Positions 15,939-19,923 of a stretch of 64,000 bases of DNA are shown in pieces. Both the position numbers and the translations under genes were made by a program. Under the pieces are notes generated by a model. It ran no database searches and was not told the origin of the DNA. It worked only from the letters and a program-made list of their open reading frames with translations. Numbering within the stretch: the stretch's first letter is position 1; every line of letters starts with the position of its first letter. Source of the DNA: Thermogemmatispora tikiterensis (GTDB taxonomy: Bacteria; Chloroflexota; Ktedonobacteria; Ktedonobacterales; Ktedonobacteraceae); contig NZ_MCIF01000002.1 of assembly GCF_003268475.1 (NCBI RefSeq), positions 3,642,671 to 3,706,670 of the forward strand. The letters are read 5' to 3'.

Positions 15939-16196
15939 ATGAAATTTGTTGCCGGCTTACTCCTGGGTTTTGGGCTGGGTTTTGCCGCCGGTCTGCTGTT
16001 CGCGCCGCAGTCGGGCGAGGCGACTCGGGCGCAGCTTACGGAGCAGGGACTGCTGCTGCGTGATCGCTCGCTGGGACTGAGCCAGGAGCTGCGTCAGCGC
16101 GCGAACGAGGCCCTATCCCAGGGACGGGAGATCTACGAGCGCACCAAGGAGGAACTCAGCGAGCGCTATAGCAAGGCCAAGAGCGGCCAGCTCTAG
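15939..16196 (+). CDS. Small YtxH-domain membrane protein
   Basis: Protein of 85 residues with one N-terminal membrane helix rich in glycine (MKFVAGLLLGFGLGFAAGL), the LLFAPQSGEATR motif typical of YtxH/GvpP-like proteins, and an amphipathic, coiled-coil-prone tail of Gln, Arg and Glu residues (to about 82). YtxH family members are general-stress proteins of unknown mechanism. The start is ATG 15939; a longer open frame upstream (from 15567) has no coding character. The 330-base spacer after the receiver gene suggests its own promoter. Confidence 0.78.
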   Translation: MKFVAGLLLGFGLGFAAGLLFAPQSGEATRAQLTEQGLLLRDRSLGLSQELRQRANEALSQGREIYERTKEELSERYSKAKSGQL

Positions 16197-16418
16197 GTCT
16201 TGTTCAGCTGAAGGGACTTGCTGGGTGCCTGGGGACTCTCCCTTCGGCTGTGGGGGCGCGAGGCAGGCCCGGGGGTGCCCTCTGGCGCGCTCAGGCGTAG
16301 ATTGGATTAGTAGCAAGCAAGAAGGCAGGTGCCGCTGGCAGGCTGATCACAGAGGCTTGCGCGGGCCTGCCTGCCTGCCTTCTTCTTCTTCGTCTCAGCG
16401 TCTCGTCTCCTACCCGCT

Positions 16419-16673
16419 TCAAGAAGCGCCTGGGCGATCATACTGGCGCAGCAGACGATCCACCAGATTCCCAATCTCATGCCAGATATGGTGCTGATAG
16501 TCGAGCATGCGCGCCTGGGTCAGGTCGAACTCACGGTTGCCAGGATCGCTCTGGGCGTGCTCCTCAAACTGGCGAGCGAGCTTTAAAGACCGCTCGCCGC
16601 GGCTGTGTAAGTAGCGTGATAGCTCATACAGGTCCTTGATCAGGGCCTTCAGTTGCTCCTCGCTCGTAGCCAT
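16419..16673 (-). CDS. Small conserved-looking helical protein, unknown function
   Basis: Protein of 84 residues starting at ATG 16673 with GGAAGGA about 12 bases upstream. It is predicted almost wholly helical and charged: KALIKDLYELSRYLHSRG, then KLARQFEEHAQSD and a MLDYQHHIWHEIGNLVDRLL stretch near the C-terminus. I do not recognise a family. Its first 50 bases overlap, in another frame, the 3' end of the AhpD-like gene that lies immediately upstream, so the two are probably co-transcribed leftward. Confidence 0.55.
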   Translation of the reverse strand: MATSEEQLKALIKDLYELSRYLHSRGERSLKLARQFEEHAQSDPGNREFDLTQARMLDYQHHIWHEIGNLVDRLLRQYDRPGAS

Positions 16674-17274
16674 AGGCTTCTGTATCCTTCCTCTCTCCGC
16701 TGCCGCTGCCCCGTTGAGCCTCTTCCTTACTCCGAGAGCGGGTGGGTGGCTCAATATGGAGAGCATCCGCGAAGCGGTTGAAGCAGTTGAAGAGGCCGAT
16801 CACCATCGCCAGCTCAACGATCTCACCGTCATCAAAATGGCTCTGCAGTTCGTCCCACAACTCTTCATCGATGTCGCGGGCCGAGGTCGTCATGATCTCG
16901 GCGAAGCGCAAAGCTACCAGCTCACGCGCCGTAAAGAGATGGCGGTGAGTATCGATGTGATAGAGCGCATCCAGCAGCTCCTCGCTGACGCCTAGCTGCC
17001 CTGCCAGGGCAGTATGGGCAGCCATTCAATAGTGGCAGTAGTTGACCTGGGAGACGCGGATCGCCAGCAGCTCTTTCAAGCGCGGCTCAACGCTGCCGCT
17101 ACGCATGACTGTTTGCAGCAGCTGCATCGTCTGGCGCGCCACCTCGGGACGGTGGGCCATGACGCGAAACAGCTCCTGCATGGTAGCGAAAGCCTGAGTC
17201 TGGTGTTGATGTGACTCGCCTTCCGCGCCCGCGGGCCAGAAATTGCTGTCTTCAACCGGGGGGATGCGTGACAT
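16624..17274 (-). CDS. AhpD/carboxymuconolactone-decarboxylase-like protein with in-frame UGA in CxxC: putative selenoprotein
   Basis: Two leftward frames, 17274-17029 and 17025-16624, are separated only by TGA (17028-17026) and are in the same phase. Read through, they give one protein of 216 residues with the AhpD/CMD fold. The active-site block is ELLAIRVSQVNYC-H-Y-(UGA)-M-A-A-H: Cys80, UGA at 83 and His87, exactly the family's CxxCxxxH with UGA in place of the second Cys. Sequence after the UGA continues the family normally (ALAGQLGVSEELLDAL, then LFTARELVALRFAEIM). A hairpin with a G near the start of its apical loop follows the UGA by 19 bases, as in bacterial SECIS elements. AhpD-like CxxU selenoproteins are known. 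The alternative is a nonsense mutation of TGC. No Sec machinery lies in this window. Confidence 0.7.
16996..17012 (-). promoter_or_regulatory. Candidate bacterial SECIS hairpin behind the in-frame UGA
   Basis: Read leftward, CTGCCC-TGGCA-GGGCAG forms a perfect 6-bp stem with a 5-base loop whose second base is G. Nineteen bases lie between the UGA and the loop, inside the 16-37 range of the bacterial SECIS consensus. A competing 7-bp stem (GCTGCCC 17022-17016 with GGGCAGC 17001-16995) also exists. Hairpins are common in GC-rich coding DNA, so this is supporting, not decisive. Confidence 0.45.
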
Positions 17275-17414
17275 CGGACTCGCTTCATCCTGCTCTTTGG
17301 CTTTGTGATCATTCTAGCGAAAGGCAGACCCTGGGTGCAAGCACCTCCTGGCTGACTGTCGATGAAGACGGCGATCTGCAGATCTGCACCTGCAGCCCAC
17401 TCGATAGGGAGGGA

Positions 17415-18337
17415 TCAGAAGTATCCCTGGTCGAGCACCGTCTCCTCATCCAGCGTCTCTTGAGAGAGGAACTGATCAATATAGCTGATGAAAAGCTGAA
17501 AAACCTCCTCGCGGTAAGGATGGCTGCGCAGAAAAGTAAGATAGGTCCCTTTCAGACTTTGCCTCCCTTGGTAAGTGCTGAATTTCTCGCGTGTGGCCGC
17601 GCTGATTCTTTTTGCCTTGCGCAAGATCAGAACTCTATCAGTAGGCGTTGTGCCCGTGTTGATGGACTTCATATCCAGCCACTCGCAAAGGAGAAGATAT
17701 TTGGCCAATGGCAGGGCTGATTTCAGATCCCGGGCTGTAGCACATGCCTCCTGGAACATAGTCTTATCCAGATTAGTTTTGCATTCGGTTGCTATGTAAG
17801 CTAAATTGGTCCTCAGTTCGAGTGATCCCTCAAAGGTGGGCGAGTGAGAGGCGCGGATGTAGAGAGGCAAGCTCAGAGCGAAGTCCTGGGCTTTCTGGCG
17901 AAGGGAGAGACCTCCTCCTGGCTCTCTCCTGATTAGGCTTGAGTCAAACCAGATGGCAGAAAAGCTTTCAACAGGTCCGAGGTGAATGCCTGGCGGTAGC
18001 TTATGACCAAGTAATGCCTGTACCAAGCGAGGAAGGAACTCCTCAATGATTGAGTTATCCAACTTGGTTTGGCCTTTCTGGCGATAGAGCCAGTCATGAG
18101 GGCTGTCAAAGATCAAGTTGATATCGAGATGCAGTCTGTATCATTCAATTCGCTTACCATGTAATGAAGAAGCTTTTGCGGCTGATATCTGTACTGAAGA
18201 CTAATTGATTCTAAACTAGATATCCAAATATAATAATCTTTCAGAGCTTTCTCAACCAGCGGCTTATCGTCGTGAGGCAACTTCTCATTAAGGAGTGTCG
18301 CCGTTAGCTTATCCAGGTGAGGAGTAGGGAATTTCAT
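17415..18337 (-). pseudogene. Bpu10I-like type II restriction endonuclease, frameshifted
   Basis: Two leftward frames, 18337-18113 and 18116-17415, look like one gene broken by a -1 shift. The first begins MKFPTPHLDKL and runs to TGA at 18113. Switching phase between about 18120 and 18145 restores LDINLIFDSPHDWLYRQKG, which flows into the second frame. The second part has the nuclease signature YIATECKTNLDKTMFQEA (ExK of the PD-(D/E)xK fold), as in Bpu10I-family enzymes. Whole length would be about 307 residues. It follows a DNA methyltransferase gene with a 4-base overlap, the usual arrangement of a restriction-modification pair. Base composition is less GC-rich than the surroundings, suggesting transfer. 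Assignment to Bpu10I is from memory of the motif, not a search. Confidence 0.65.
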
Positions 18338-19679
18338 AGGAGTCCTCCGATGGTATGCCTGGGATCGAAGAAGGGAGAAGGTTGCACACGCTGGGCTTTG
18401 CTGATGGCTTCCAAGATCTCCTGACCGGCAGGCGCCTCTGTATCTATTTGTTGAAATGCATCCCTGAGAATACAGAGAGCTAGGGAACGAGCAAAATCAT
18501 CATTGAATGGAGGAAATGTAGAAGTCGATGCTAGGTGGAGTACATCCTCGTAGATGATCTCTCCGAACTTATTGAGAAACTTTCGTTCTTCGACCGAGGC
18601 CAGCTCTAGACCGGCCCCTCCTAGCGCGAGCGCGGTGATGAGCCTGCTGTTGCCGAGCCGCACGCCGCGGATGGTGGACTCGCGACCTATGACGATAACC
18701 AGGTGCCCATCCTCAACAAGCAGGCGTCGCATTTCTCGCAGGGCTGCTAGCATGTCTAAAGCGCACTGAATCACTGTGAGAAATCTGTTTTGGCGGTGTT
18801 TACGGTTGGCTCCAATCTCGGATTGAGCAACGGTGAGGAGGTTCCATCCCAGCTGTTCCATCACCGCTCGGTTGTTTTGATGGTAGTTGAAAACATTCAT
18901 ATAGGGAGGGGAGGTCACAATCAGCTGAACGCTTGTATTAGCCAGAGGCAAAGAGCGGGCATCATTGTGAAAGATATGATATTGGGCAACGCTATAGGGT
19001 AGATTTCTGATAATCGCAGCCAGCTCATGGAAAGATGTATACCAGTTATTCCCCTTTTTGTTTTTTTATTTTCAAAATATTTCATTAGTGTGTTTACTAG
19101 TATGATTCTTAAAAAGTGATCGTTCGTCTCTTTTATTAGAGAAAGCATAATCTCTTCTTTGGAGTGGGAATAGTCATCAACCCCAGGTTCCCCAGGTTCA
19201 AGATTACTAAGGGAGAAAAGGTCTATAAAGGCGGGCTGTAGCGCTTTCTTTAAAAGAGACTCTGCCTCCTGGATCAGATCCTGGCGTTCAGAGGGCGTCA
19301 GGCGGACAAAGTAGACTGTCCGAGCCAGCGCCACCGCTGCGGGATTGATATCGGCAGCGTAGCAGCTCAGGCCCTGACGTGCCGCCTCAAAAAGGGTCGT
19401 ACCGCTGCCCACAAAGGGGTCCAGGACGACGGTCCCCTGCTCTGCATAGCGGTGCAAAAGCAGCTCGACCAGTTGAGGAGAGAACTGGCCGCGCCACGGA
19501 AAGAGACTGGTGCGCTCTCTCCTTTTCAAGTCGAGACGCCCTGCAGATGTGCGCCAGCCCTCTTGCAGCGAAATCGTCGCCTGCTCGAGGAGCCTGGCGC
19601 TTGACGAAAAGATATCCTTGGGTAGACTCTGCTCTATGGCCGCATCCAGGAGGCTCTGAGACGATTTCTGGTACATCAT
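18334..19679 (-). pseudogene. DNA (cytosine-N4/adenine-N6) methyltransferase, frameshifted in an A-tract
   Basis: The 5' frame holds motif I (VVLDPFVGSGTTLFEA, then YAADINPAA); the 3' frame holds motif IV (VTSPPYMNVFNY) and the LVIVIGREST region. The switch is -1 and lies in the tract AAAAAAACAAAAAGGGG (about 19068-19052 on the minus strand): past it the other frame reads GNNWYTSFHELAAIIRNLPY, joining smoothly to the 3' frame. Restored length is about 448 residues from ATG 19679; the true start is uncertain since a TTG at 19688 has a better GAGGAGA site. Motif order is I before IV. It overlaps the following nuclease gene by ATGA. One missing base, a phase-variable tract or a sequencing error would all give this picture. 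Confidence 0.75.
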
Positions 19680-19923
19680 GCCGCTCAACGACCTTGAGTC
19701 TCCTCGCACCTGAGGGAAGTTCTCCTCTCCTCCTCGCTGTATTGTCCTTGCGGAGCCGGAGGAGCCAGAGCGCCATCGGTGGAATGGTGCGGCAACAGCC
19801 CTACGATTGCCGCGGGTGAGGCGTGTGGCTCCATTTTGCCACAGGCAGCTCAACCTGTCAATCAACAGCGTCCTGGTTTGGGCCTGGCCAGGTTCCAACA
19901 ACTAAGCTGGACTGCAAGGAGAA

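What the first reader, a model, noticed from the sequence alone, without database searches (positions are those of the whole stretch)
16624..17274. Candidate selenoprotein: AhpD/CMD-like protein with in-frame UGA replacing the second Cys of CxxC
The sequence shows two frames in the same phase separated only by TGA, and the combined product is a complete AhpD/carboxymuconolactone-decarboxylase-like protein of 216 residues. The TGA falls at the second Cys of the CxxCxxxH active site (C-H-Y-UGA-M-A-A-H), the one place where selenocysteine would make chemical sense, and family sequence continues normally after it. AhpD-like proteins are a known selenoprotein family. A SECIS-like hairpin follows. 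A standard gene caller would break this into two genes or call a pseudogene.
Basis: partly seen in the sequence, partly recalled or inferred. Interest (0 to 1): 0.88.

Follow-up and report, generated by a model that had tools for sequence, protein, structure and literature searches.

The report
Selenium-containing AhpD-like protein gene, confirmed
A gene that looks broken by a stop codon in a heat-loving soil bacterium (Thermogemmatispora) is almost certainly intact and uses that codon to insert selenocysteine into the active site of an AhpD-like redox enzyme, a clear new case of an already known kind of selenoprotein.

Summary
The finding holds. On the minus strand (17274→16624) one frame encodes a 216-residue CMD/AhpD-like protein interrupted only by TGA at 17028–17026, the second position of C-H-Y-U-M-A-A-H. 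The genome carries tRNA-Sec (UCA), selA, selB and selD, and selD itself has an in-frame TGA. Orthologues occur in 43 of 47 genomes of the order: 42 have TGA at this codon and one has Cys. A 7-bp hairpin with a GGC loop starts 13 nt after the UGA. It is present in all 45 UGA genes examined, including Bacillota and Eremiobacterota (99.6% of pairs formed, three covarying pairs, up to seven paired changes on the tree). It is absent from nine Cys homologues. Stem pairing even dictates the encoded residues (Gly/Arg/Lys, Gln/Arg). Both halves are under equal purifying selection. Pseudogene and two-gene readings are rejected.

AhpD-like CxxU selenoproteins (TIGR01926, PF02627) are already described, so this is a new member of a known kind; Sec insertion is inferred, not measured. 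The less expected part is a conserved, unannotated 84-residue helical-hairpin protein (16422–16673, minus) directly downstream across the order, which overlaps the selenoprotein gene by 50 nt in this genus.

The parts
16624..17274 (-). AhpD-like (CMD family) selenoprotein gene, 216 aa, Sec at residue 83; residues after about 176 are a variable genus-specific tail
   Evidence: Translation with TGA=U; Pfam CMD 56.7 bits across the TGA; orthologues in 43 of 47 genomes of the order
17026..17028 (-). In-frame UGA codon read as selenocysteine, second position of CxxU (CHYU)
   Evidence: TGA in 42 of 43 orthologues of the order, TGC in one; also TGA in Bacillota, Eremiobacterota and another Chloroflexota family
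16996..17012 (-). Bacterial SECIS-like hairpin CUGCCCU-GGC-AGGGCAG, 7-bp stem, apical loop 20 nt after the UGA, G at loop positions 1 and 2
   Evidence: 99.6% of pairs formed, three pairs with compensatory changes; absent in nine Cys homologues
16422..16673 (-). Conserved downstream partner gene, 84 aa, predicted two-helix hairpin; its start overlaps the end of the selenoprotein gene by 50 nt
   Evidence: Adjacent in nearly all orthologue loci with sequence downstream; match in 40 of 47 genomes, nearly always one copy; no Pfam or NCBIfam hit over cut-off; AlphaFold pLDDT 93.6

Best explanation
This is a functional selenoprotein gene of Thermogemmatispora (Chloroflexota, Ktedonobacteria). Its mRNA carries a bacterial SECIS hairpin whose loop starts 20 nt after the in-frame UGA. 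SelB with selenocysteinyl-tRNA-Sec, made by SelD and SelA, decodes the UGA as selenocysteine, giving a complete all-helical AhpD-like protein. In the AhpD active site the Sec replaces the second cysteine of CxxC (Mtb Cys133, PA0269 Cys51), inside an intact Glu68-Cys80-Tyr82-Sec83-His87 proton-relay arrangement. The likely chemistry is peroxide or disulfide reduction with a selenenylsulfide formed to Cys80 and re-reduced by a thiol donor. Shown here: the gene architecture, Sec machinery, conservation, hairpin covariation and active-site residues. Inferred: Sec incorporation, the redox chemistry, the substrate, and the role of the downstream 84-aa partner.
For: tRNA-Sec 69.3 bits and ARAGORN SeC(tca); selA 579 bits, selB 349 bits, selD 381 bits with its own in-frame TGA (SCAGUAAK). 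TGA at the same codon in 42 of 43 orthologues of the order, in Alkaliphilus peptidifermentans and an Eremiobacterota MAG, and in another Chloroflexota family. Hairpin: 99.6% of pairs formed, covariation score above all 500 shuffles and all slid registers; changes on the tree at col 21/29 (7 and 7), 22/28 (4 and 4) and 18/32 (4 and 3). UGA with hairpin 45 of 45, Cys with hairpin 0 of 9. pN/pS 0.081 before and 0.082 after the UGA within the genus. G003, G006 and G007 lack the orthologue and also lack a selA match. Active-site residues match PA0269 (PMC3141380; residue columns).
Against: No protein-level or 75Se evidence exists here. Three genomes with the UGA gene gave no selA match (G008, G016, G045), but they are MAGs at 76-84% completeness. 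One orthologue (L029) has one mismatched stem pair. On the tree there are only 3 Sec/Cys changes (2 on well-supported branches), so the Sec-hairpin association rests on few independent events. The window protein is 1 bit below the TIGR01926 cut-off.
Confidence: 0.97

Rival explanations
1. The TGA is a true nonsense mutation and the gene is a decaying pseudogene.
For: Table 11 gives two ORFs; a gene caller would report them separately.
Against: The same TGA is kept in 42 of 43 orthologues across four families of the order and in other phyla, with no other stop inside the domain. pN/pS is equally low on both sides. The hairpin covaries.
Confidence: 0.01
2. Two separate genes: an 82-aa product and a re-initiated 133-aa product beginning at the ATG right after the TGA.
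For: The codon after TGA is ATG in this genome.
Against: The next residue is Met, Lys, Glu, Leu, Ile or Arg in relatives and one orthologue has TGC with a continuous frame. The CMD domain is split across the TGA. It does not explain the covarying hairpin.
Confidence: 0.01
3. UGA is read through as another residue (Trp or Cys by near-cognate tRNA) rather than Sec.
For: Near-cognate read-through of UGA is known in bacteria (own knowledge).
Against: The site aligns with catalytic Cys; the full Sec machinery is present; a bSECIS-type hairpin appears only with UGA and not with Cys.
Confidence: 0.01

Closest known systems
AhpD-like selenoproteins (TIGR01926 / COG2128, CxxU), listed in PMC13188914 and reported in the Sargasso Sea set (PMC1088965)
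   Same: CMD/AhpD fold, Sec at the second position of CxxU, bacterial SECIS just downstream, Cys homologues widespread
   Different: The window protein scores 80.8 bits against a cut-off of 81.8; this Ktedonobacterial clade has a conserved downstream partner gene and a strictly constrained 7-bp/GGC SECIS. I found no paper describing it.
YciW-related (seleno)protein NF053654
   Same: Related CMD protein with CxxU; a separate true member exists in the order (L063, 354.7 bits)
   Different: The window protein scores 92.8 bits against a cut-off of 310, so it is not this equivalog
AhpD of M. tuberculosis and PA0269 of P. aeruginosa (PDB 2O4D; PMC3141380)
   Same: Same relay residues and spacing (Glu, Cys, Tyr, second Cys/Sec, His); 65.3 bits to 2O4D
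   Different: Those use Cys, not Sec; no AhpC or AhpF neighbour was seen beside this gene

Membership tests
Bacterial selenoprotein | In-frame UGA at a position that is Cys in homologues | tested here: met
   42 of 43 orthologues of the order have TGA, one has TGC; other Cys homologues
Bacterial selenoprotein | SECIS hairpin just downstream of the UGA, small apical loop with a conserved G | tested here: met
   7 bp, loop GGC, loop 20 nt after UGA, covariation; loop G as in PMC1088965
Bacterial selenoprotein | Genome encodes tRNA-Sec, SelA, SelB, SelD | tested here: met
Bacterial selenoprotein | Selenocysteine present in the purified protein | not testable with these tools
   Needs 75Se labelling or mass spectrometry
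CMD family PF02627 | Pfam gathering score 23 bits | tested here: met
   56.7 bits
AhpD core domain TIGR00778 | Cut-off 27.8 bits | tested here: met
   50.3 bits
AhpD-like TIGR01926 (peroxidase-related) | Cut-off 81.8 bits | tested here: inconclusive
   Window protein 80.8, 1 bit short with C written for U; orthologues from the same order score 76.9 to 92.6, L090 from another Chloroflexota family 103.8
AhpD-like TIGR01926 (peroxidase-related) | Proton-relay residues Glu, Cys, His/Tyr, Cys(Sec), His at AhpD spacing | tested here: met
   E68, C80, Y82, U83, H87, compared with PMC3141380
YciW-related (seleno)protein NF053654 | Cut-off 310 bits | tested here: not met
   92.8 bits

The most novel reading that the evidence does not exclude
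The Sec-AhpD protein and its conserved 84-aa helical-hairpin neighbour form an undescribed two-gene redox module, ancestral in Ktedonobacterales, in which the small protein is a dedicated partner (adaptor, scaffold or electron-donor docking protein) of the selenoenzyme.
Probability: 0.45. Interest if true: 0.45.

Novelty: new member of a known kind. Interest (0 to 1): 0.35.

Why it matters
It rescues a gene that automated annotation would split or call a pseudogene, and shows the same in 42 genomes of one Chloroflexota order. The family shows plainly how a coding-region SECIS constrains protein sequence: residues 9 and 10 codons after Sec change (Gly/Arg/Lys, Gln/Arg) in step with changes in the codons on the other side of the stem, and the constraint vanishes where Cys stands in place of Sec. 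It also points to an unannotated conserved partner protein that could be tested for a link to the selenoenzyme.

Tried and rejected
Plus-strand reading: contains a TAG and gives no family product. Rfam scan of 16000-18500: only chance miRNA hits, no SECIS family match. A genome-contig scan with one protein found 16 relatives and supplied organism names and distant UGA/Cys homologues. Literature searches for selenoproteins in Ktedonobacter, Thermogemmatispora or Chloroflexota found nothing on this gene. PMC5330540 mentions a Ktedonobacter racemifer AhpC in a figure legend, not AhpD. The partner gene was searched in Pfam and NCBIfam without a significant hit; a fold search was not run because a two-helix hairpin would match many unrelated structures. 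Tandem repeats: none.

Full report
OBSERVATION. The stretch 16624-17274 read on the minus strand gives ATG, 82 codons, TGA (17028-17026), 133 more codons and a terminal TGA: 216 residues with U at residue 83 in NYCHY-U-MAAH. The plus strand carries no such product. Joined through the TGA the product matches Pfam CMD at 56.7 bits over nearly the whole profile; the first half alone scores 30.3 and the second half has no hit. NCBIfam gives ahpD_dom 50.3 (cut-off 27.8), peroxid_rel TIGR01926 80.8 (cut-off 81.8) and YciW-related (seleno)protein 92.8 (cut-off 310).

GENOME. The nearest named relatives are Thermogemmatispora (MAG HOG59, T. aurantia, T. carboxidivorans, MAG HOG45; 81-95% identity over the protein). 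The window's own genome (5.97 Mb, 94.5% complete) holds a tRNA-Sec with UCA anticodon, selA at 579 bits, selB at 349 bits and selD at 381 bits. selD itself contains an in-frame TGA in SCAGUAAK, so it appears to be a selenoprotein too.

CONSERVATION. In the order, 43 of 47 genomes have an orthologue at 42% identity or more. After orientation and alignment by motif, 42 carry TGA at exactly this codon and one (G018, L045) carries TGC. Outside the order, UGA is found at the same place in Alkaliphilus peptidifermentans and an Eremiobacterota MAG and in another Chloroflexota family (L090). Cys is found in seven genomes of one Chloroflexota family (L083-L089) and in an Acetothermia MAG (L078). Within the genus pN/pS is 0.081 before and 0.082 after the UGA. 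G003, G006 and G007 lack both the orthologue and a selA match; G008, G016 and G045 have the gene but no selA match, and are incomplete MAGs.

SECIS. A hairpin CUGCCCU-GGC-AGGGCAG lies at 17012-16996, its loop starting 20 nt after the UGA. RNAalifold finds the same hairpin on 39 sequences. Over 35 diverse UGA sequences 99.6% of pair cells are standard and three of seven pairs show changes on both sides; no shuffle of 500 reaches the covariation score and sliding the register destroys the pairing (the same on the order alone). On a tree built with the hairpin residues masked, paired positions change 7 and 7, 4 and 4, and 4 and 3 times; branch support is moderate, so these are best-tree counts. 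The coding sequence bends to the RNA: GCC-CUG...GGG (Gly), GCC-UUG...AGG (Arg) and GCU-UUG...AAG (Lys) occur as sets, and ACU...CAG (Gln) becomes ACC/UCC...CGG (Arg). All 45 UGA genes have 6-7 of 7 pairs; the nine Cys genes have 1-3. There are only three Sec/Cys changes on the tree (two on well-supported branches), so the Fisher value there overstates independence. From my own knowledge, the loop distance and the G in the first loop positions fit the published bacterial SECIS model; PMC1088965 states the small apical loop with a guanosine.

MECHANISM. The AhpD proton relay of PA0269 is Glu36, Cys48, Tyr50, Cys51, His55, matching Mtb Glu118, Cys130, His132, Cys133, His137 (PMC3141380). The window protein has E68, C80, Y82, U83, H87 at identical spacing. 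Sec therefore sits at the second cysteine. Inference: peroxide or disulfide reduction through a selenenylsulfide with Cys80. The three family f3 orthologues (L057-L059) have Ala instead of Glu and Gln instead of His while keeping CxxU and the hairpin, so the relay may be altered there.

PARTNER GENE. An 84-aa protein (16422-16673, minus) starts 50 nt before the end of the selenoprotein frame. It has a match in 40 of 47 genomes of the order, nearly always as one copy, and lies just downstream of the selenoprotein gene in nearly all orthologue loci with enough sequence, including the Cys-form genome G018. In G037 it lies elsewhere in the genome, and no match was found in G029 or G030. It has no Pfam or NCBIfam match over cut-off and is predicted as a confident two-helix hairpin (pLDDT 93.6). 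Its function is unknown; operonic linkage suggests a shared role. The last 40 residues of the selenoprotein vary in length within the genus because this stretch runs into the partner's start.

NOVELTY. AhpD-like CxxU selenoproteins are catalogued (TIGR01926 and PF02627 rows in the 2026 review PMC13188914; 27 sequences in PMC1088965; AhpD-like 1 and 2 in PMC2398784). No paper found describes the Ktedonobacterial members. This is a new member of a known kind.

Noticed in passing
window 16422-16673 (-): Conserved 84-aa two-helix protein with no Pfam or NCBIfam match over cut-off, next to the selenoprotein gene across most of the order.
   Followed up: partly
window 17415-18116 (-): Bpu10I-type restriction endonuclease (PF09549, 268 bits) just upstream of the selenoprotein gene.
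   Followed up: no
window 18334-19901 (-): DNA methylase matching N6_N4_Mtase in two pieces in different frames (18921-19901 and 18334-18951), probably a frameshift or sequencing error in the companion of the restriction gene.
   Followed up: no
L061, L063, L065, L066: Further CMD-type protein groups in the order with TGA at the second position of CxxU and a possible hairpin: L063 is NF053654 YciW-related, L065 is TIGR01926, L061 and L066 fit no equivalog over cut-off.
   Followed up: partly
L014 (own genome, C2:1611645-1612583 +): selD carries an in-frame TGA (SCAGUAAK), so selenophosphate synthetase is probably itself a selenoprotein here.
   Followed up: partly
L057, L058, L059: Family f3 orthologues keep CxxU and the hairpin but have Ala for the relay Glu and Gln for the relay His, hinting at changed chemistry.
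   Followed up: no
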